Shown here piece by piece: positions 8,844-41,179 of a stretch of DNA of 64,000 nucleotides. This stretch comes from a virus. The number at the start of each line of letters is the position of its first letter. Position 1 is the stretch's first letter. The notes below the pieces were generated by a model, which had not been told where the DNA came from, made no database searches, and worked only from the letters and a program-made list of their open reading frames with translations. A program made the position numbers and the translations under genes. The stretch is taken from the IMG/VR virus record IMGVR_UViG_3300047493_000037, positions 30,713 through 94,712 of that record, one strand, 5' to 3'.

Positions 8844-9124
8844 ATTTTAAGAAGCCAAAGCAAGAAGTAATAGAAGAAACCACATTCAGAGTAAATGGGA
8901 TTTTATCTGCTTACTTCCAGCAGATGCAATATGGTAATCCAAGTTATCCAAGTCATATGCATAGTTACAGCGGATCATATCCTACTTATGGACCTGCTCC
9001 TATATTGGACACATTACAGTACACTATCTCTTTAGCTATAAGAGAAGCAGTTATTAGTCTAGTAGAAAATACATACACTGATATGGAATTTGAAGAAGAT
9101 CTAAACTTGAGGGATAAATCATGA
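8840..9124 (+). CDS. Small unknown protein between helicase and lysozyme
   Basis: A 94-residue protein, coupled by ATGA overlaps on both sides to the helicase and the lysozyme genes. The middle is rich in Tyr, Pro, Ser and Gly (YGNPSYPSHMHSYSG), probably disordered; the C-terminal half looks helical and ends acidic. No family recognised and no membrane segment, so it is not an obvious holin. Confidence 0.6.
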   Translation: MNFKKPKQEVIEETTFRVNGILSAYFQQMQYGNPSYPSHMHSYSGSYPTYGPAPILDTLQYTISLAIREAVISLVENTYTDMEFEEDLNLRDKS

Positions 9125-9570
9125 ATCTCAGTACAAACGGCTTAAATCTTATTAAATCATTTGAAGGTTTTAAATCTGCCCCATATCTAGACAGTGCAGG
9201 AGTTGCAACGATTGGGTACGGAACAATCCTTTATCCAGATGGCACGAATGTTACCATGGATGATGATCCCATTACGGAAACTCAAGCAGAACAATACTTG
9301 CTCGACCAAGTGAATCAAAAATGTGCTAGTGTTACTAATATGGTGACGGGACAAGTAAACCAGAACCAATTTGATGCCTTAGTGAGTTTTGCTTACAACC
9401 TAGGTCTTGGTGCATTACGTGGTTCGACACTGCTTCGCTTAGTCAACCAGAATGATTTCGATAACGCTGTGAATGAGTTTGAAAAATGGGATCGTGCTGG
9501 GGGCCAAGTCGTTCAGGGCCTACTTCGTAGGCGCACTGCAGAAGCACAATTATTTTCAACTCCAGTTTAA
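9121..9570 (+). CDS. Endolysin, T4-type lysozyme (GH24)
   Basis: A 149-residue lysozyme that cleaves the glycan strands of peptidoglycan. The catalytic triad of the family is present: Glu15, Asp24 and Thr30, in FEGFKSAPYLDSAGVATIGYG. The later signatures FDALVSFAYNLG and GLLRRRTAEAQLF also match. There is no signal peptide or transmembrane anchor, so export would need a holin. It is separated from the membrane-protein genes near 61.3-62.2 kb. It ends in TAA just before the promoter of the RNA locus. Confidence 0.93.
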   Translation: MNLSTNGLNLIKSFEGFKSAPYLDSAGVATIGYGTILYPDGTNVTMDDDPITETQAEQYLLDQVNQKCASVTNMVTGQVNQNQFDALVSFAYNLGLGALRGSTLLRLVNQNDFDNAVNEFEKWDRAGGQVVQGLLRRRTAEAQLFSTPV

Positions 9571-10660: not shown

Positions 10661-10736
10661 GGTCCCATAGCTCAGCGGCCAGAGCGGCAATCTCTAAAAT
10701 TGTGCGTCGTGGGTTCGACTCCCACTGGGACCTCCA
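10661..10736 (+). tRNA. Suppressor tRNA, anticodon CTA (reads UAG)
   Basis: A textbook 76-base tRNA with every arm paired: acceptor GGTCCCA/TGGGACC, D-arm GCTC/GAGC, anticodon arm GCAAT/ATTGT with loop CTCTAAA, variable region GCGTC, T-arm GTGGG/CCCAC with loop TTCGACT, discriminator T and encoded CCA. Position 33 is T and positions 34-36 are CTA, so it decodes the amber codon UAG. The charged amino acid cannot be deduced with confidence. Seven ORFs in the window end in TAG, so the tRNA could cause partial readthrough rather than full recoding. Confidence 0.92.
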
Positions 10737-29766: not shown

Positions 29767-30340
29767 AGAAGAGAATAAACTCGCCGAGAAGTATCTTAGA
29801 AAGAATAAGACTGCTGGTGCTTTAAAAGAACTTGAAGCAGCTAAGTTATTTGAACTATATCTTCTAGGTGAATCTCTATCAAAAATCGCTCAGCAGTTTC
29901 CTCAATATAGTTTGGGTCAAATTGCCCTCACTGCTGCACTTCGTGGTTGGGCTCATGATCGCGACAAGATGATGCACACCCTTCAAGATAGGGTTCGTGC
30001 TAAGGTTGTAAAATCAGTTTTAGAGCAAGTTGATTTTTTGACTGCTATGATGTCTGTCACTAATGCAGAGCATCTAGAAGTTATGATCAAGTACTGCCAA
30101 GATCCTATAAATAATCCAAAGCCTGCAATGCGTGTTACTAACATTAAAGAATATAAGGATGTTGCTGAGACTCTATACAAGATCGTTTCAGGTGCTACTC
30201 CTGGAAGCAAGGCCAATAAATCACCTATGTTTGATGCATTGAGTCCACCTCAACAAAAGAAAGAAGAAAAACCTATGGAGCAGGATGCCGCATCAATGCT
30301 CGCGGAGGTTGTAAGCGTAGATGGCGAAGACACCTTCTAA
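29717..30340 (+). CDS. Probable small terminase subunit
   Basis: A 207-residue protein directly upstream of and overlapping the large terminase gene by 20 bases. I start at ATG 29717 (MALKKRLTEE) with GGAAGAG upstream. Residues about 45-80 form a helix-turn-helix-like unit (LYLLGESLSKIAQQFPQYS), followed by a helical oligomerisation region; the C-terminus is acidic. Small terminases recognise phage DNA and activate the motor. The call rests on position and architecture. Confidence 0.7.
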   Translation: MALKKRLTEEERYGLSEEENKLAEKYLRKNKTAGALKELEAAKLFELYLLGESLSKIAQQFPQYSLGQIALTAALRGWAHDRDKMMHTLQDRVRAKVVKSVLEQVDFLTAMMSVTNAEHLEVMIKYCQDPINNPKPAMRVTNIKEYKDVAETLYKIVSGATPGSKANKSPMFDALSPPQQKKEEKPMEQDAASMLAEVVSVDGEDTF

Positions 30341-32261
30341 TTTAACATTTGAGCAGCAGAAGAAGTTGCTTCTTACTCCTTGCAAGACTAGGCAACAGGT
30401 AAAGAACTGGATCAAGTATCACTTGGCTTTGGAGTTGCCTGATGTTACTGTATCGAGGTTCTCAGACACCAATCCTTTAGATGTTATTTGGGAAGTGTAT
30501 CGCATTTGTACTCTCAAGCAAAACCCTGACAATATCCAAGAACTTCTATTCGTCGCTGGCCGTGGTTCTGGTAAGACTCTTGGTATGGCTATTGCAGAAC
30601 TTATGGTTTTGTTGCATGACCATCGTGATGTCGTGCATGTTGGTGCAATTCAAAATCAAGCTGAGCGATGCTATGCTTATCAGAAGGGCTTTCTATATAA
30701 TCGTAGATTAAAGCCCATTGTTACTCCTATGGATGTGCCAGAGGATCAACGCATTCTTGAAAAAGCTAATATGTCTAAGTCACTCTTTAATATTGGTGGT
30801 GAAAAGAAGACTATTGAGGTTATTCCATGCACATTAAAGGCCGTTAACGGTCCTCACGTGCCTCTTGTTGTTATCGATGAGATCGATACTGTGTCTGGTG
30901 AAGGCATTAAGGCATTTAAAGATATCGCTGGCATGTTAGACTCTAAGGGTGGTAAAAAGGCTCTTCGTGTGGGTATTTCTACGCGTAAATCTCGTTATGG
31001 CTTAATGAATCAAAAGCTTGAAGAGATAGAATCTACGCCAGACAAGACGCGCCAAGCCCGTAGATGGACAGCATTTGAGTTCACCGAACGCTGTCCTGAT
31101 AGTAGATCTGGAACCACTGAGTTAGATCTTTATGTTAATCAAGACAAGATGGAAGTTCTCACCGAAGAACAGTATTTAAAGAAAGATAATAATAAGCAAA
31201 AAGAATATGTAATGCATAGAGGATTTGACGGTTGTGTTAAATGCCCACTGTTCTCTGTGTGTTTAACTGATGCTAAAAAGCAGACCTCCAAATCGCCCAT
31301 GTTGAAATCTCTTGATGAGATGATTCAAAAGGTTAGAGCTGAAGGTGCAGATTGGGCTCTAGCTCAGCTCATGAACTTAAAACCTTCTGTTGAAGGTATC
31401 GTTTTTAGGGAGTTTGAAGAAAAAGTTCATGTTAAAACATGGAACGAAATGTGGCAAACATTAGTAGGTAAGCCATTCCCCGGCGAATGTACTCATGATA
31501 TTTTCGTTAAGAAGTGCCACGAGCTAAATATTCCTTGTTACGCTGGCATTGACTGGGGTTTCTCATCACCCAATACAGTAGTCTTTTTCTTTGTTGATTC
31601 TAGAGATAACATATATGTTGTGAAAACTGACGGTATGACATATGTTAGTTCACCAACTTGGATTCACCATATTAAGACTAAGTATCACACCTTGTATAGG
31701 TGCCAACTTTATGTTCCTGATGCTGCTGATCAAGGCTCCATTCAGGAAATGCAGAAGGCGGGTCTACCTGTAGCTAATCAGCCAGATAAAGGACAGATTA
31801 ATACCGGTATTCAAGTTATTAAGAAGTTCTTGAAGATGCCAGGTACAACAGAACCAAAGATTTTCTTAGCCAAAGACCACTGTCTTCCTTTGGTAAGAGA
31901 GTTTAGTCTGTATCACTACAAAGTGGATGCCGCAGGACTGATTACGGATGATCCAGATACTGAGCATGATCACTGGCTAGATGCTTTAAGATATCCAATG
32001 ACATTGCTGTTTGGGAAGTCCCAGATCATCTTAGGGAGCGGTTTGATAGATCAGGGCGCTGGTTTACAGGACACACAGGGCAATTTCCAGAGAATGCCAA
32101 CGCCTACTGAGTACGCGCTAACTCAAGGAATAAGAATGAATGATCAAGAGCCAGATAGATCTAAGTTGGGCAAAATAGGCACAGCAAAAGAGCTAGATGA
32201 AGCAAAAGATGACGATGATGACGGAATTGGTGGCGGTGGTGGCTTCATTTGGAGCGTTTAG
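30321..32261 (+). CDS. Large terminase subunit (packaging ATPase-nuclease)
   Basis: A 646-residue motor protein. Walker A AGRGSGKT is at residues 79-86, Walker B PLVVIDEI at 181-188. The RNase-H-like nuclease begins at YAGIDWGFSS (Asp411) and has further acids in YVPDAADQGS and DHWLDALRYP. Between the domains lies a cysteine cluster CVKCPLFSVC (305-314) that may bind metal. The C-terminus is Asp- and Gly-rich. The gene ends in TAG; a second TAG and then TAA follow in frame within 18 bases, so suppression would add about 9 residues. Confidence 0.95.
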   Translation: MAKTPSNLTFEQQKKLLLTPCKTRQQVKNWIKYHLALELPDVTVSRFSDTNPLDVIWEVYRICTLKQNPDNIQELLFVAGRGSGKTLGMAIAELMVLLHDHRDVVHVGAIQNQAERCYAYQKGFLYNRRLKPIVTPMDVPEDQRILEKANMSKSLFNIGGEKKTIEVIPCTLKAVNGPHVPLVVIDEIDTVSGEGIKAFKDIAGMLDSKGGKKALRVGISTRKSRYGLMNQKLEEIESTPDKTRQARRWTAFEFTERCPDSRSGTTELDLYVNQDKMEVLTEEQYLKKDNNKQKEYVMHRGFDGCVKCPLFSVCLTDAKKQTSKSPMLKSLDEMIQKVRAEGADWALAQLMNLKPSVEGIVFREFEEKVHVKTWNEMWQTLVGKPFPGECTHDIFVKKCHELNIPCYAGIDWGFSSPNTVVFFFVDSRDNIYVVKTDGMTYVSSPTWIHHIKTKYHTLYRCQLYVPDAADQGSIQEMQKAGLPVANQPDKGQINTGIQVIKKFLKMPGTTEPKIFLAKDHCLPLVREFSLYHYKVDAAGLITDDPDTEHDHWLDALRYPMTLLFGKSQIILGSGLIDQGAGLQDTQGNFQRMPTPTEYALTQGIRMNDQEPDRSKLGKIGTAKELDEAKDDDDDGIGGGGGFIWSV

Positions 32262-32295: not shown

Positions 32296-34293
32296 ATGGC
32301 ATGGTACGATGATTGGTTGAAAAATAAAGTCCAGGGGCAAATTAATGACCTATTGAAGGCTGATGGTGTTTCACCAGAGACCCCTTCAGGTGGTATTTCT
32401 TCTTTTGCTTCACCAGAGACTCCTGCTAGTGCTAATGCCGATAGGTTGCCAGATGTACCTGAAGAAAACCATGATGCTAGCGGGCAGATTGGTCGCAAGG
32501 CGTACGTCGATGATCCTTATTTTGACCTAATTGGGTCTCAAGTCAATTACAAGTTTAAACTTAGTCGTATCTCAAACAAAACCTTGAAAGAGGTCTCTGT
32601 TAGAGATTGGCTAATTTCGGCTATCATCCAGTGCCGTATTGATACCCTGTTAAGGTTCTCTAGACCTGAACATCGTCGTTTTGAGATGGGTTTTCGCATC
32701 TTAAAGAAAGACACAGAAGCACATTACACTGATGCTGAGAAGGATGAAATTGCAGCAATTGAAGATTTCATCTATCATTGTGGCCGCAAAGAAGGAACCC
32801 CTCAGGACGATAAGAGAAACTTTGGCGAGTTCTTAAAAGTTATTGGGCGTGATGCTTTGACCTTCGGCCACGTTGCTATTGAAAAAGTTAAGACTAGAGC
32901 TGGTGGCTTACACAGGTTCCGTCCTCTTCCGGCTGAGTCAATGTATCTTATTAATAAGGCATTGTCAAAGGAACAGGTAAGTTCTAACGCAATGAAGAGT
33001 TATCAGCTAAATAGACCAAAAAGCGACAATGATCCTAAGGCTGATCAAGTTGTTAATGAAGTTGAAAATGACTTCATCAAATATGTGCAAATCTCGTATG
33101 ATAATAGGCCTCTAGCTACCTTTGGTGATGAGGATTGCATCTGGAAGTTGTTTAATCCACAGAATTTTGCTGATTCAATGGGGTATTGTTACTCACCATT
33201 AGAACTTGCTATTATTAATATCACTAACCACTTAAACGTGGAAAATTACAATGCTAACTTCTTTACTCATGGATATGCTGCACGAGGCGTATTACATTTA
33301 AAGGGTACTGTTACGCAGCAACAACTTGCTAATTTTCGTAGAACCTTTTATAACAGCATCACTGGCCATCAAAATGCTTGGAGAACGCCAATTGTTGCCG
33401 GTTTAGATGAGGTTCAATGGGTGCCGATGTCTGCTAACGCAAAAGAGATGGAGTACTTAAACTATAATAACCATCTTATGCGCATTCTTTGCGCCCAGTT
33501 TCAGATTGACCCAATAGAACTTGGTTTGGACTATTTGATATCTTCTTCTGGAAGAGCTCCTATGCAGCAATCAAGTAATGAATACAAGATCACCTATTCT
33601 CGTGAGCGTGGTCTGGTTCCAGTATTGATGTTCGTCGAAGACATCATTAATGCAGATGTTCTTCCTGCCCTAGATCCTGCTATTGCTGCCAAATATAAGT
33701 TTGTGTTTACCGGCATGACCGAGGAAACACCGCAAACTGAAATCGCTCAAATGCAAGCTGAAATGACTGTTTGGAAGACAATGAACGATCTTCTTAAGCA
33801 GGCTCAGAAGGACAAGATTGAGGAGAAAGCTGCTGATCTTCCTTTGAATCAAGCATTTTGGGCACTTGTTGAGAAAAACTATACTCGTGGTGAGATTCGT
33901 GAAAACTTCTTTGGGGATAAGGGGGCTTCACAGAGACGCGAACTTCAGTATATTCCTGGTGATCCATCATTCTTAAATTGGAATCAGTTTATTGCTACAC
34001 TTGATGCTCAGAAAAAGCAGGCAGAACAGATGGCACAACAGCAAGACGCAGCATCTCAAGAGGCTCAAATGAAGATGGAGCAAGAGAAACAGAAACATGA
34101 ACATGCTGAGGCTGCTCATAGTCGTGATAAAGAAAAGCATAACCTTGAGATGGAGCAAATTAAGGCTAAAGCTGCAAGTGATGCTGTACAACATGGTCTT
34201 AAGGATACTGCTAAGCAGTTTGGGGCTACTAAGCCATCAAATATTGGCGGACAAGCAGTTGCCAATCCTATGAACCATGAAGACAATACCTGA
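32296..34293 (+). CDS. Portal protein
   Basis: A 665-residue protein directly after the large terminase. After a Pro/Ser-rich N-terminus (20-60) comes a long portal-like core with RDWLISAIIQCRIDTLLRFS and, further on, FNPQNFADSMGYCYSPLE, VENYNANFF and LGLDYLISSSGR, patterns seen in large-phage portals. The last 110 residues are Gln/Lys/Glu-rich coiled coil and tail. It should form the dodecameric ring through which DNA is pumped. Assignment is by position, size and pattern. Confidence 0.85.
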   Translation: MAWYDDWLKNKVQGQINDLLKADGVSPETPSGGISSFASPETPASANADRLPDVPEENHDASGQIGRKAYVDDPYFDLIGSQVNYKFKLSRISNKTLKEVSVRDWLISAIIQCRIDTLLRFSRPEHRRFEMGFRILKKDTEAHYTDAEKDEIAAIEDFIYHCGRKEGTPQDDKRNFGEFLKVIGRDALTFGHVAIEKVKTRAGGLHRFRPLPAESMYLINKALSKEQVSSNAMKSYQLNRPKSDNDPKADQVVNEVENDFIKYVQISYDNRPLATFGDEDCIWKLFNPQNFADSMGYCYSPLELAIINITNHLNVENYNANFFTHGYAARGVLHLKGTVTQQQLANFRRTFYNSITGHQNAWRTPIVAGLDEVQWVPMSANAKEMEYLNYNNHLMRILCAQFQIDPIELGLDYLISSSGRAPMQQSSNEYKITYSRERGLVPVLMFVEDIINADVLPALDPAIAAKYKFVFTGMTEETPQTEIAQMQAEMTVWKTMNDLLKQAQKDKIEEKAADLPLNQAFWALVEKNYTRGEIRENFFGDKGASQRRELQYIPGDPSFLNWNQFIATLDAQKKQAEQMAQQQDAASQEAQMKMEQEKQKHEHAEAAHSRDKEKHNLEMEQIKAKAASDAVQHGLKDTAKQFGATKPSNIGGQAVANPMNHEDNT

Positions 34294-36095: not shown

Positions 36096-36508
36096 TGTCA
36101 GACCAAGACGATAAGATGGACTCAAGATGCCCTCGTGCTCTAGAAACCCTCCCAGAGGGTTTCTGTCCACTTGCCGTCATGCGTCTTAGGGCAATCAGAA
36201 CAGCTGGACGAGAACTCACCGAAGAAGAGGAGTCTAAGCTTCCTGGTTGTCCATGGGCAGTTAATCATCAGCTTGCCAATTATTGCTTCTTTAAGTATAT
36301 AAAGGAGTTTGCCGGTGATAAACCACCTTCTGACATAGAAGTTGCTTCATTAAACTGTATGTCTGTTGATGCAGTTAAAAAGACTGAAAAGGTTGCTCTT
36401 ACTAAAATTAGAGACACCGACCAATTCCAGGATCTTAAGGATTCTATGGAAGGCGAGAATGTCGTTTCAGAACATCCGTCGGACGATGATTATAAAATCT
36501 ACAGATAG
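36095..36508 (+). CDS. Cys-rich protein with sigma region 4-like helix-turn-helix
   Basis: A 137-residue protein. Four cysteines occur as two C-x11-C pairs (12/24 and 52/64; RCPRALETLPEGFC and GCPWAVNHQLANYC), suggesting an Fe-S or zinc centre. Residues 78-106 (PSDIEVASLNCMSVDAVKKT, then EKVALTKIR) look like sigma-factor region 4. It may be a phage transcription factor, comparable in idea to T4 gp33, which uses a region-4-like fold. It ends in TAG; suppression would add 14 residues up to TAA. Confidence 0.6.
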   Translation: MSDQDDKMDSRCPRALETLPEGFCPLAVMRLRAIRTAGRELTEEEESKLPGCPWAVNHQLANYCFFKYIKEFAGDKPPSDIEVASLNCMSVDAVKKTEKVALTKIRDTDQFQDLKDSMEGENVVSEHPSDDDYKIYR

Positions 36509-36662
36509 TCAAAGATTAGCAACCTACAATCTTTTAGATTTACTCCATAAATTAGGCATTAAGACCAGACCTCTTCTTTATGTAGAGGGTTTTCTTTTAA
36601 AGAGTGTCACTTTTGACATGAAAAACCTCGTTCTGTGGCCTAGCATTAAAAACACCCCATAA
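36486..36662 (+). CDS. Small ORF with a capsid-protein-like C-terminus
   Basis: A 58-residue ORF overlapping the previous gene. Its C-terminal 19 residues, LKSVTFDMKNLVLWPSIKN, closely match residues 57-75 of the major capsid protein encoded at 39731 (LKSITFDMKNLKFWPAVSV). The N-terminal part holds YNLLDLLHKLGI, shared with the ORF at 43717. It could be a duplicated fragment of the capsid gene or a small protein that binds where the capsid N-terminus binds. Weak ribosome site. Confidence 0.5.
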   Translation: MIIKSTDSQRLATYNLLDLLHKLGIKTRPLLYVEGFLLKSVTFDMKNLVLWPSIKNTP

Positions 36663-36681
36663 ATCATAGTCTCTAGCCTGG

Positions 36682-36687
36682 TATAAT
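36682..36687 (+). promoter_or_regulatory. -10 element TATAAT of the prohead protease gene
   Basis: CTGGTATAAT ends 8 bases before ATG 36696. There is no ribosome site, so the mRNA is leaderless or nearly so. Confidence 0.55.
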
Positions 36688-36695
36688 TGAGTGGT

Positions 36696-38345
36696 ATGGC
36701 CAAGAAACCACTCGAGATTGATGCTTGCGCAGGGTCCCAGCTCAGGGATACCCAAGGAGAAATGCTCTCCGTTGAGGGAGCTGACATCTCTGAACTCCAA
36801 GCTGGCAAGGGCCGTTGGAACGACAATCACGGTAAGGGGTTTTTCAACTCTGTAGGCCGTATTACTCATGCCAAGAAGATCTTTAAAGAAGAAGACTGCG
36901 AAGATGACCGCCATAGATACTATTGGAACAAGGTCAAGGCGCCCTATGTCTACGTTAAAGGTTACCTGTACGACGACGAAGACCATCCAAACGCAAAGGC
37001 TGCCGCAGCCATCCTTCGTAACGTCCATAAGGCTGATTGTCCACTAAAACTGAAAGCCTCAGTAGAAGGTGGAGTAATTTCACGCGGGATCTCAGACCCA
37101 TCTCTTCTTGCAAGAACGAAGATACACTCTGTTGCACTTACCTTTACTCCTGCGAATGTTGCGACTCTTGTTGAGCCATTAAGTCTAGATAAATCTCAAT
37201 ATGATGAAGCCACTGATATGGTTCTCATCAAATCTGTTATACATCTTGCAGAAACCAACGTACCATCTTTTCGTCATATTGCCAGAGACGCATCTGCTTC
37301 TAAGGTTGTAAGCAACATAGAAAAGATAGCCTCTCTAGTCAAAGACGATAGACAGATTGACATACCTACTAAACAAGCGATAATTGAATATGCCTTAGAG
37401 GCAAAAATTCAAAGCAACATCGTTAAAATTCATGAAGAAGTTGAAAAAAGTTTAAAGAGTAATCTAGCAGGCGCTGCTATGATGGGCGCTGCTGCGCTTT
37501 CTCCATCTGTTGGAGATGCAAGAGCGCCTAAAAGATTACCTGCTCCACATCAAGAACAAGTACAACAAAGTTTAAATAAGATGCCGGAGCAGCATCAAAA
37601 GGCATATCAAGAATATGCAAAGAAGAACCCTCTTCTTGGCGCAATTGGCATGGTTGAATCAAGTGGCGGCAAAAATTATGCCCACAAAGCAATAAACAAC
37701 CCAAAGAGTATACATAACGGTCATGTTGCTGGTGGCATGTTCGGAATGATGCCAAATGCTGCAGAATATGCCTTAAGACATGATCCAAAACTAGCAAGCA
37801 AGTATCCTAAGCTATCCGAAGCTGCAAAAGACATGAAGAACAATCATCATGCGTTCACCGAAATGTTCAATTCTAATCCTGAGGCTGCATATGATTTTGC
37901 AAGCTCACTATTAAGCAGGAATAAGAACAAAACAAAAGACATCAATATGTTAATTCATTCTTGGAACAATGGCCTTAAGGGCACTTGGGAAAAATATAAG
38001 AATGAGGGTCCAGAGTCTATTAAGGATGCTGAATACGTTAAAAACGTTATGAAAGCATACAAAGGACTTACAGATCATAATTCAAAGAAAAATTTAACAA
38101 AAGCTCTCACTGCTGGTTATGGTGGTGCTGGTGCACCTACTTCAAATACAGGGGGTGGAGTACTTCAGTCTGAGTCATTAGATGATGGCAGAGGTAATAA
38201 AGATAAGAGTTTTAAGTATGTTACATGCGATGACTGCGGTAAAGAACAGATATATTCTAAGTATCAAGTTAAATGCAGAGATTGTAATAAGTCGTTCCCG
38301 ATGGAAAAGTTGCATAAACTTTTTTTAGGGGCGATAGCAACGTAA
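36696..38345 (+). CDS. Composite prohead protease, transglycosylase-like, capsid-motif and zinc-ribbon protein
   Basis: A 549-residue mosaic. Residues 1-160 resemble a prohead protease: GRITHAKKIF, then KLKASVEGGVISRG with candidate nucleophile Ser122 and HSVALTFTPAN; His45, His58 and His111 are candidate partners. Residues 310-435 look like a lytic transglycosylase (LGAIGMVESSGG with Glu321, AGGMFGMMPNAAEY, then HSWNNG). Residues 467-496 (TKALTAGYGGAGAP, then GGGVLQSESLD) match residues 26-54 of the capsid protein. The end is a zinc ribbon with Cys511, 514, 527 and 530. The shared GGVLQ-x-ESL may be a protease site in both proteins. Confidence 0.75.
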   Translation: MAKKPLEIDACAGSQLRDTQGEMLSVEGADISELQAGKGRWNDNHGKGFFNSVGRITHAKKIFKEEDCEDDRHRYYWNKVKAPYVYVKGYLYDDEDHPNAKAAAAILRNVHKADCPLKLKASVEGGVISRGISDPSLLARTKIHSVALTFTPANVATLVEPLSLDKSQYDEATDMVLIKSVIHLAETNVPSFRHIARDASASKVVSNIEKIASLVKDDRQIDIPTKQAIIEYALEAKIQSNIVKIHEEVEKSLKSNLAGAAMMGAAALSPSVGDARAPKRLPAPHQEQVQQSLNKMPEQHQKAYQEYAKKNPLLGAIGMVESSGGKNYAHKAINNPKSIHNGHVAGGMFGMMPNAAEYALRHDPKLASKYPKLSEAAKDMKNNHHAFTEMFNSNPEAAYDFASSLLSRNKNKTKDINMLIHSWNNGLKGTWEKYKNEGPESIKDAEYVKNVMKAYKGLTDHNSKKNLTKALTAGYGGAGAPTSNTGGGVLQSESLDDGRGNKDKSFKYVTCDDCGKEQIYSKYQVKCRDCNKSFPMEKLHKLFLGAIAT

Positions 38346-38893: not shown

Positions 38894-39712
38894 ATGAAAG
38901 ACGAATTAAGAAAGAGTCTTACAGACCTGATCGACGAGACGCTTCTCGAGCTCGAAGAGCTTAAGAAGTCTCGCTTCTCAGCAAGTGAGATCGAAATTAA
39001 GGGTCCTGGCGAAGGTATTGCAGGCAAGCCAACTAATGGCGATCTTCATGCTAAGGCTGAAGATAAGAAAGATGACAAGAAGGACGATGAAGACGAAGAG
39101 GCTGAAAAGGCCGAAGGTCATAATCGTCAAGCTGATCCAGATGGTGGACACCACAAGATGGATAAGGACGAAAGTGGTATGCCAGTTGGCACTACTGCTA
39201 AGGCCGAAGGTCACAATCGTCAAGCTGATCCAGACGGCGGCCATCACAAGATGGACAAGGCTGAAGATAAAGACGATAAAGATGACGACAAGAAGAAGAA
39301 AGACAAAGACGCCAAGGGCGGCGAAGAGCACGAGAAGAAAGAAAAAGAAGCTATTGGCAAACTTGCTAATCTAGCTGGCATGCGCAAATCTGATGAAGAG
39401 ATGCAAGGCCTAATGAAGAGCTTTGTTGAAGAGAGAGTAAGACCTCTTGAAGACAAGCTGTCAACTATCCTTAATCTTGTGAACAAGATCGCAGATCAAC
39501 CAGTTGCCCATAAGGGTGTTACTGGCCGTGCTGTTCCTCTGATGAAGAGTGCTGACGAGCTCGGTGGTGGTGAATCACTTTCTAAGTCTGAAGTAGCTTC
39601 AAAGCTATTTGAGCTTAAGAAGTCAGGAACTAAAGTTGACTCTCTGGATATTACCAGGGCTGAAATGGGACACGATCTCGCAAAGATCGTAGACAAATAT
39701 AAGATTTCGTAA
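38894..39712 (+). CDS. Probable capsid scaffolding/assembly protein
   Basis: A 272-residue, highly charged protein immediately before the major capsid gene, the usual place of a scaffold. A short helical N-terminus is followed by a Lys/Asp/Glu-rich middle with a duplicated block (AEGHNRQADPDGGHHKMDK occurs twice, about 30 residues apart) and a helical C-terminal part (VRPLEDKLSTILNLVNKIAD). The duplicated blocks differ at synonymous sites, so the duplication is not very recent. Function inferred from position and composition. Confidence 0.7.
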   Translation: MKDELRKSLTDLIDETLLELEELKKSRFSASEIEIKGPGEGIAGKPTNGDLHAKAEDKKDDKKDDEDEEAEKAEGHNRQADPDGGHHKMDKDESGMPVGTTAKAEGHNRQADPDGGHHKMDKAEDKDDKDDDKKKKDKDAKGGEEHEKKEKEAIGKLANLAGMRKSDEEMQGLMKSFVEERVRPLEDKLSTILNLVNKIADQPVAHKGVTGRAVPLMKSADELGGGESLSKSEVASKLFELKKSGTKVDSLDITRAEMGHDLAKIVDKYKIS

Positions 39713-39730: not shown

Positions 39731-41179
39731 ATGAATGACGCAATTAATCAAGTTTTGCAGGGTCTAGACCAAGGCCTCGTAAACGCAGCTGATATTGAAA
39801 ATTTGAATAAGGCGATCACCGCTGGTTACGGTGGAGCTGGTAAGCCTACAGACCTCACCTATGGTGGTGTTTTGCAGGCGGAATCCCTTGAAGCTACTCT
39901 CAAGTCGATTACTTTCGACATGAAGAATCTCAAGTTCTGGCCAGCAGTTAGCGTTGATAAGGCCTATAACTTGTTCGAACAGTACAACCGTTTGATCAGT
40001 TATGGTTCTGATTCGGCACCTTACATCGGTGAAGGTGGCGCTCCTCAGGAAGAAGATAGCACGTACGTACGTGACGGTCAAAAGATCGTGTTCTTCGGTA
40101 CTCGTCGTAGGGTTTCGCACCAGATGACGCTCGTACGTGTTACTGTTGGTGACATTGTCGCTCAGCAGGCAAAAGAAGGAACGATGCATCTTCTCAAGAA
40201 TATCGAACGTGAACTCTATTGGGGTCATGCTCACTTCATGAATGCAACTACCGGTGCAGAAACTGGTTCTGATGCTGATCTTCCAGTTAACTCTATCGCT
40301 ATGAGCGGCTTGCTAAAGCAGCTTCAGAAGGGTGACACGGATGCACAGATGCAAGCCGGTGACTTCCTCGGATATGGCGATTCTAGCTCGATCGTGACCG
40401 ATCTTGCTGGTCAGGTTATGGCTCAGGACGACATTGAACGTCTTGCCGTTATTGCCTTGGAAAACTTCGGTGCTCCAGATCAGTTGCATATCGAACCAGC
40501 TGCTCTATCAGCCTTCGTTAAGCAGTTCTATCCTCAGTTCCGTTCGGCTCCAGGTCTTGCTAACCAAACGGTTGGCTATGACGTGTCTAAGGTCCAAACG
40601 ACTGCAGGCGCTATCGATCTAAAGCCAAACTTGTTCTTGCGTCCACGTGCAGGCGTTCGCGCTCTTGCAGTGAACAACCAAGCCCCAGCAGCTTCCTTCA
40701 CGGCAGCAGCAGCGGGTGCAGCTGGTACTTCTAGCTTCGCAGCTGGAACCTATCAGGTCAAGGTAACAGCAGTGAATGATGCCGGCGAATCTTCTCCAGT
40801 GTCTTCTGCAGCTGTAACCCTCACGCAGGGCCAGAATATGGCAGTGACTCTTGGCGGAACCATCCCAAGCGGTGTTAAGTATTGGAAACTTTACATCTCC
40901 GCTCCAGGTGGTGCAGTTGGTACTGAAAAGTTCGCAGGTAACTGGGCTAACCAGGGTGCAGGCGTTTACACCAGCTCTAACGTGCAGCTCCCAGGCCTTG
41001 GTGAAGCATTCTTGCTCGACATGAGTGCTGAGTGCATGCGCTTCAAGCAACTTGCTCCTCTAAGCAAGATTAACTTCGCTATCGTGACGACTGCTCTTGA
41101 GTTCGCGATCGTGATGTACGGAGCGTTGTTCGTGTATACTCCTCGCTTCAACTGCTTGTTCCGTAATATGGGTAAGTAA
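39731..41179 (+). CDS. Major capsid protein with Ig-like insert
   Basis: A 482-residue protein in the expected order after protease and scaffold, with AAGGAG upstream and codon use typical of a very abundant protein. Residues 24-75 contain LNKAITAGYGGAGKP, GGVLQAESLE (possible maturation cleavage after Glu51) and LKSITFDMKNLKFWP. The HK97-type core continues to about 310 (DIERELYWGHAHF, then FGAPDQLHIEPAALSAFVK). Residues about 315-420 look like an inserted immunoglobulin or fibronectin-type domain (GTYQVKVTAVNDAGESSPVS), then the core ends FVYTPRFNCLFRNMGK. A strong terminator follows. Confidence 0.88.
   Translation: MNDAINQVLQGLDQGLVNAADIENLNKAITAGYGGAGKPTDLTYGGVLQAESLEATLKSITFDMKNLKFWPAVSVDKAYNLFEQYNRLISYGSDSAPYIGEGGAPQEEDSTYVRDGQKIVFFGTRRRVSHQMTLVRVTVGDIVAQQAKEGTMHLLKNIERELYWGHAHFMNATTGAETGSDADLPVNSIAMSGLLKQLQKGDTDAQMQAGDFLGYGDSSSIVTDLAGQVMAQDDIERLAVIALENFGAPDQLHIEPAALSAFVKQFYPQFRSAPGLANQTVGYDVSKVQTTAGAIDLKPNLFLRPRAGVRALAVNNQAPAASFTAAAAGAAGTSSFAAGTYQVKVTAVNDAGESSPVSSAAVTLTQGQNMAVTLGGTIPSGVKYWKLYISAPGGAVGTEKFAGNWANQGAGVYTSSNVQLPGLGEAFLLDMSAECMRFKQLAPLSKINFAIVTTALEFAIVMYGALFVYTPRFNCLFRNMGK

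What the first reader, a model, noticed from the sequence alone, without database searches (positions are those of the whole stretch)
36696..38345. Four-part protease, transglycosylase, capsid-motif and zinc-ribbon fusion
A prohead protease-like domain is fused to a lytic transglycosylase-like domain with the catalytic-Glu pattern, then to a copy of the capsid N-terminal motif, then to a zinc ribbon. I know of no phage protease with this order. The transglycosylase could be released inside the head by self-cleavage and act at entry.
Basis: partly seen in the sequence, partly recalled or inferred. Interest (0 to 1): 0.78.

Follow-up and report, generated by a model that had tools for sequence, protein, structure and literature searches.

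The report
Capsid protease carrying releasable enzyme cargo
A phage head-maturation protease carries in one chain a probable cell-wall-cutting enzyme, a copy of the phage's own capsid cleavage-site region and a zinc ribbon; many related phages put other domains, or none, in the same slot, which suggests a general way of loading an enzyme into the phage head and cutting it free there.

Summary
The ORF at 36696-38345 (549 aa, + strand) lies between portal and scaffold/capsid genes and reads: head maturation protease (1-~166), helical linker, signal-peptide-like segment, SLT/lysozyme-like domain (~290-460, Glu321), copy of the capsid N-terminal arm (456-496), zinc ribbon (511-530). The order is not unique: 35 of 66 distinct complete relatives have it, 12 join protease to motif directly, and 19 carry other inserts (GNAT; HEAT-like; basic/hydrophobic stretches). 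The motif is in all 66. It also follows the protease domain in Herelleviridae proteases (SPO1, 812, EFDG1, LMTA-34 and others), Mx1 and Mecenats66, and it co-diverges with each phage's own capsid (0 of 20,000 permutations). It begins at a K|[S/A] bond; the mature 812 capsid chain deposited in the PDB starts exactly there. I read the motif as a capsid-type processing (and perhaps docking) sequence inside the protease, and the slot before it as a cargo bay. In this clade the cargo is a probable transglycosylase, flanked by K251|S and K469|A, to be released in the prohead and probably ejected with the DNA. Cleavage, virion presence and peptidoglycan activity are inferred, not shown. A new variant of a known kind.

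The parts
36696..38345 (+). whole gene: 549-aa head maturation protease polyprotein
36696..37193 (+). protease domain, residues 1-166; invariant H45 (36828-36830) and S122 (37059-37061)
   Evidence: phrog_1028; hhalign to SPO1-type proteases, probability 97%; invariant columns
37191..37448 (+). helical linker between candidate cleavage sites K166|S167, K179|S180 and K251|S252
   Evidence: nearly invariant KS positions; K[SAG] site list; cleavage is inferred
37449..37538 (+). signal-peptide/membrane-like segment SLKSNLAGAAMMGAAALSPSVGDARA, residues 252-281
   Evidence: conserved K, then an A/G/M-rich stretch, in A2; hydropathy; no dedicated predictor run
37563..38075 (+). SLT/lysozyme-like domain, residues about 290-460, catalytic-type Glu321 (37656-37658)
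   Evidence: Pfam SLT on the excised segment; model; fold searches; invariant Glu
38061..38183 (+). copy of the capsid N-terminal region, residues 456-496; putative scissile K469|A470 (K at 38100-38102)
   Evidence: 61% identity to capsid 14-54; present in 66 of 66 distinct complete relatives
38226..38285 (+). zinc ribbon, C511, C514, C527, C530
   Evidence: conserved CxxC...CxxC in the family
39731..41179 (+). major capsid protein whose N-terminal region is copied; expected K27|A28 processing site (K at 39809-39811)
   Evidence: phrog_752 E 1e-58; homologue of SPO1 and 812 capsids
38894..39712 (+). scaffold-like protein with 11 K[S/A] sites
   Evidence: position next to the capsid gene; site count 11 versus 6.0 expected, p 0.019
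36486..36662 (+). 58-aa ORF directly upstream whose C-terminus (LKSVTFDMKNLVLWP) copies the next part of the capsid N-arm
   Evidence: tblastn E 5e-4; same place in three relatives, profile E 1e-5 to 3e-7; pN below pS

Best explanation
The protein is a self-processing head maturation protease polyprotein with a cargo slot. Its N-terminal serine protease cuts after lysine, before Ser/Ala/Gly plus a hydrophobic residue, the type of bond at which the phage's capsid propeptide is removed. The copy of the capsid N-terminal region gives the protease chain the same recognition sequence as the capsid (K469|A470), so the chain is incorporated and cut on the same schedule as the capsid. In this clade the region between protease and motif, bounded by K251|S and K469|A, is a probable SLT-type transglycosylase behind a signal-peptide-like stretch. 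Proteolysis inside the prohead would free it; as a head-internal protein it would be ejected with the DNA and open peptidoglycan locally at entry, as T7 gp16 does. Shown: modules, their conservation, co-divergence of the motif with the capsid, variable cargo. Inferred: cleavage, packaging, ejection, enzymatic activity.
For: Protease identity and gene position between portal and capsid. The motif follows the protease domain in 13 of 15 phages examined outside the clade and in all 66 distinct complete clade members. Own protease-capsid motif scores exceed permuted pairings: 0 of 20,000 with 16 phages; 3 of 362,880 with 9 deep representatives. A profile of 11 Herelleviridae proteases searched against the PDB hits only major capsid proteins, through this motif (E 1e-9). 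PDB chain 9row, the 812 capsid, starts at S25 directly after K24, where the motif begins. Scaffolds of SPO1, 812, Iacchus, Eal132, LysYB2 and AVP have 7-10 K[S/A]-hydrophobic sites against about 1 expected. A K|[G/S/A/N] site precedes the SLT segment in the aligned members. Variable cargo: none in 12, SLT in 35, other in 19, among them GNAT and HEAT/LRV-repeat inserts. A prohead protease of this family is detected in virions of a Herelleviridae phage (PMC12282133). Autocleavage is known for a prohead protease of another phage (SPN3US gp245, PMC10052503).
Against: No direct evidence of cleavage, packaging or activity. SLT support by sequence is marginal: 22.4 bits on the excised domain, hhalign probability only 3.6% against E. 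coli and T7 SLTs although in the right register. The full-length model is poor (pTM 0.38) and its PDB search uninformative. The similarity extends about 35-40 residues past the cut, more than a protease site needs, so docking may be the main role. K at P1 is missing in the protease copies of Iacchus and Mecenats66. The window's own scaffold is only weakly enriched in K[S/A] sites.
Confidence: 0.55

Rival explanations
1. The capsid-motif copy is mainly a docking tag: it mimics the capsid N-arm so that the protease binds the same partner (scaffold or capsid lattice) and is built into the procapsid. Cleavage at K469 is secondary or absent.
For: The similarity covers about 40 residues on the mature side of the cut, beyond normal protease subsite range. 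Co-divergence with the own capsid fits a shared binding partner. A separate small ORF carries the adjoining N-arm piece.
Against: The motif starts exactly at the capsid's processing bond with K kept at P1 in most proteases.
Confidence: 0.3
2. The SLT-like domain is a structural or regulatory spacer with a lysozyme-like fold but no peptidoglycan role, or acts in assembly rather than entry.
For: Weak sequence similarity to characterised SLTs; relatives do without it.
Confidence: 0.2
3. The capsid piece in the protease gene is a chance recombination scar without function.
For: Pieces of capsid N-terminal sequence lie both upstream of and inside the gene.
Against: The copy is in all 66 distinct complete relatives and across Herelleviridae, with strong co-divergence.
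Confidence: 0.03

Closest known systems
SPO1 gp3.2-type head maturation protease (PHROG 1028, Herelleviridae)
   Same: Protease domain with invariant His and Ser, gene between portal and scaffold/capsid, capsid-like motif after the domain.
   Different: SPO1-type proteins are about 250-280 aa with no cargo and no zinc ribbon; their motif is followed by a different helical tail.
Myxococcus phage Mx1 putative prohead protease (1239 aa)
   Same: Closest annotated phage relative (37% over residues 1-174); has the capsid motif matching its own capsid.
   Different: Its roughly 960-aa extra part lies after the motif; no SLT or zinc ribbon was recognised.
T7 gp16 internal virion protein with SLT domain
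   Same: SLT domain carried by a head-internal protein proposed to open peptidoglycan at entry (own knowledge; annotation).
   Different: gp16 is not fused to a maturation protease.
Polyvalent proteins of phages and conjugative elements (PMC5512222)
   Same: Multidomain proteins combining a peptidase with lysozyme, GNAT and other domains, proposed to self-process and to be delivered with DNA.
   Different: The peptidase described there is mainly a zincin metallopeptidase; here it is the capsid maturation protease itself, with a capsid-derived motif.
SPN3US gp245 and T4 gp21 prohead proteases
   Same: Autocleaving capsid proteases that also process internal ejection proteins (PMC10052503).
   Different: SPN3US gp245 cuts after Glu; a cargo domain inside the protease chain was not found in the passages read.

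Membership tests
SPO1-type head maturation protease (PHROG 1028) | sequence profile match over the protease domain | tested here: met
   E 3.5e-10, 24 of 24 members; hhalign probability 97%, E 1.8e-11
SPO1-type head maturation protease (PHROG 1028) | invariant active-site-type His and Ser in a SxEG context | tested here: met
   H45 and S122 invariant; aligned with H63 and S119 of SPO1-type proteases
SPO1-type head maturation protease (PHROG 1028) | gene between portal and scaffold/capsid | tested here: met
SPO1-type head maturation protease (PHROG 1028) | proteolysis of capsid, scaffold and self | not testable with these tools
   needs prohead biochemistry
Lytic transglycosylase SLT (PF01464, lysozyme-like superfamily) | score above the Pfam cut-off | tested here: inconclusive
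   22.4 versus 21.3 bits on the excised window domain, 18 bits on the whole protein, no other member
Lytic transglycosylase SLT (PF01464, lysozyme-like superfamily) | lysozyme-like fold | tested here: met
   pLDDT 85.6 model; top PDB neighbours lytic transglycosylases, probability 0.82-0.93 but E 0.16-0.4; BFVD GEWL-like E 2.7e-4
Lytic transglycosylase SLT (PF01464, lysozyme-like superfamily) | catalytic Glu in ES motif, GLMQ(I/M)MP-like and (A)YN-G-like motifs in order | tested here: met
   ESSGG, GMFGMMP, SWNNG in register; Glu invariant in A2, Asn of the last motif variable
Lytic transglycosylase SLT (PF01464, lysozyme-like superfamily) | peptidoglycan cleavage | not testable with these tools
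   enzymatic assay needed
Polyvalent protein (Iyer et al. 2017) | peptidase combined with interchangeable effector domains, delivered with DNA | tested here: inconclusive
   interchangeable inserts seen; delivery not testable

The most novel reading that the evidence does not exclude
A copy of the capsid's N-terminal processing region inside the maturation protease is a general device of SPO1-like phages, and a large clade (MAG evidence points to Bacteroidota) has turned it into a head-loading cassette: any domain placed between protease and motif is packaged, cut free at capsid-type sites and injected. The transglycosylase is one of several interchangeable cargoes.
Probability: 0.4. Interest if true: 0.8.

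Novelty: new variant of a known kind. Interest (0 to 1): 0.62.

Why it matters
It suggests how SPO1-like phages recruit and time their capsid protease: it carries its own capsid's cleavage region, co-diverging with it. It also suggests a natural cargo bay for loading enzymes into heads with a built-in release step. Both are directly testable by mass spectrometry in cultured phages such as SPO1, 812 and Mx1. I found no description of the shared motif in the papers searched, which is not proof that none exists.

Tried and rejected
Considered the capsid pieces upstream of and inside the gene as one split gene (intron or duplication scar): rejected, because both are conserved in place in relatives, the inner copy is universal, and the upstream ORF shows pN below pS in all six comparisons (0.24-0.53 against 0.74-0.82; only four sequences, pS saturated). 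Full-length AlphaFold model: too poor (pTM 0.38) to say whether the motif sits in the active site; its PDB search was uninformative. hhalign of the SLT alignment to E. coli Slt, MltC, MltD and T7 gp16: probability only 3.6%. tblastn of the SLT domain against annotated phages: no match. PDB sequence search with the whole protein: nothing relevant. Ten literature searches found no paper describing a capsid motif in the protease or this fusion. A first tree labelling had a script error and was redone; L088 was left among the 'other' inserts there although its full-length match makes it an SLT type, hence 35/19/12 here.

Full report
WHERE IT IS. The window is part (30713-94712) of a 176,837-base IMG/VR virus record. 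Around the finding are terminase (30321-32261), portal (32296-34293), the finding (36696-38345), a scaffold-like acidic protein (38894-39712) and the major capsid protein (39731-41179), assigned by PHROGs and Pfam or, for the scaffold, by position. The capsid is of the SPO1/812 type. Related proteases occur in three metagenome-assembled genomes labelled Saprospiraceae, Flavobacteriaceae and Cytophagales, so the hosts are probably Bacteroidota, with the usual doubt about binning.

THE PROTEASE. Residues 1-166 match PHROG head maturation protease families. A profile of 24 relatives aligns to 11 Herelleviridae proteases with probability 97% and E 1.8e-11; H45 and S122 are invariant and line up with invariant H63 and S119 of the SPO1 set. 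The nearest annotated phage protein is the Mx1 putative prohead protease, 37% identical over residues 1-174.

THE SLT-LIKE DOMAIN. The excised domain passes the Pfam SLT cut-off by one bit, the whole protein does not, and no other member does. AlphaFold2 gives a confident helical domain. Its best PDB neighbours are lytic transglycosylases at good Foldseek probability but weak E-values, and in viral models GEWL/SLT-like proteins at E 2.7e-4 and probability 1.0. Glu321 is invariant in the 20 aligned members, and the GMMP and NG-type motifs follow in SLT order. I call it a probable transglycosylase. The phage has a separate lysozyme-type endolysin at about 9121-9570. SLT, GH108, M23 and amidase_2 models found nothing else in the record; the SLT model at whole-genome settings misses this domain too, so those negatives are soft.

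THE CAPSID MOTIF. Residues 456-496 are 61% identical to capsid residues 14-54. In 15 phages outside the clade whose protease and capsid genes I compared, 13 have the same arrangement: SPO1, 812, LMTA-34, EFDG1, PMS2, Iacchus, Troll, Goe27, Eal132, LysYB2, AVP, Mx1 and Mecenats66. Bacteroides DAC16 and Chryseobacterium MA9V-3 lack it (in MA9V-3 the protease ORF was assigned by position only). Each protease copy resembles its own capsid more than expected: 0 of 20,000 permutations reach the observed own-pair score with 16 phages, and 3 of 362,880 with nine deep representatives. If the copy had arisen once before these phages split and drifted freely, own pairs should not stand out; shared recognition or gene conversion is implied. 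A profile of the Herelleviridae proteases alone, searched against all PDB sequences, finds only major capsid proteins, through this stretch (E 1e-9).

WHERE THE CUT WOULD BE. The deposited chain of the 812 capsid in 9row begins at S25, directly after K24. The motif in the proteases starts at that point, mostly with K before it. K[S/A]-hydrophobic sites are strongly over-represented in many scaffolds (for example 9 against 1.1 in SPO1, 10 against 1.2 in Eal132) but not in the window's own scaffold, which has an excess of plain K[S/A] only (11 against 6, p 0.019). In the window protein candidate sites are K166, K179, K251 and K469. K251 precedes an A/G/M-rich, signal-peptide-like stretch before the SLT domain and is conserved as K|[G/S/A/N] in the aligned members. 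This is inference from patterns; no cleavage was observed.

THE SLOT. Among 66 distinct complete relatives, 35 carry the SLT domain, 12 have protease and motif almost directly joined, and 19 have other material there; nearly all keep the zinc ribbon. Other contents include GNAT acetyltransferases (L090, L102) and HEAT-like repeats (L097). L100 has LRV/HEAT repeats between motif and ribbon, and L081 and L082 have a C-terminal extension after the ribbon. On a tree of the protease domain the three states need about 13 changes against 27 in shuffles; well-supported branches alone force at least two for the SLT state. Several inserts without SLT also begin with an EKG-plus-hydrophobic segment.

READING. 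The simplest account is a protease that carries its own capsid-type processing region and, in this clade, a cargo between protease and motif that is released during head maturation. For a transglycosylase the sensible place of action is the cell wall at entry, as for T7 gp16 (own knowledge; annotation). Support from elsewhere: a prohead protease is detected in virions of a Listeria Herelleviridae phage (PMC12282133), prohead protease autocleavage is established in SPN3US (PMC10052503), and multidomain delivered proteins with peptidases are a known theme (PMC5512222). The main rival is that the motif is a docking tag; the two are compatible.

NOVELTY. The parts are known kinds; the combination with a capsid-derived motif and an exchangeable cargo slot appears undescribed in the library searched. 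I score it as a new variant of a known kind.

Noticed in passing
window 36486-36662; L049 8747-8971, L053 8706-8969, L054 8724-8969: Small ORF directly upstream of the protease gene whose C-terminus copies the next part of the capsid N-arm (ESLxxxLxxVTFDxKxLxLWP). Together with the motif in the protease it tiles the capsid N-arm; pN is below pS in all six comparisons.
   Followed up: partly
L009, L020, L029, L032, upstream of the protease gene: HNH-endonuclease-like ORFs sit in the gap just before the protease gene in several relatives, suggesting an insertion hot spot.
   Followed up: no
window 10661-10736: tRNA with CUA anticodon (ARAGORN calls it tRNA-Pyl). TAG still ends 5 of 50 genes checked, so general recoding is unlikely; possibly a suppressor tRNA.
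   Followed up: partly
window 36660-36700, also before 18051, 32296 and 41674: TATAAT about 5-12 bases before the start codon of several genes, including the protease, which may indicate a very short leader or a phage-specific promoter.
   Followed up: no
L001 8980-12699 (Mx1): The Mx1 prohead protease is 1239 aa, with about 960 aa of material unrecognised by Pfam after the capsid motif, possibly another cargo.
   Followed up: partly
L097, L100: Protease polyproteins of 940-990 aa carry HEAT/LRV repeats and a conserved HCGN...SLR region reminiscent of PcfJ-like domains (resemblance from memory, not tested).
   Followed up: partly
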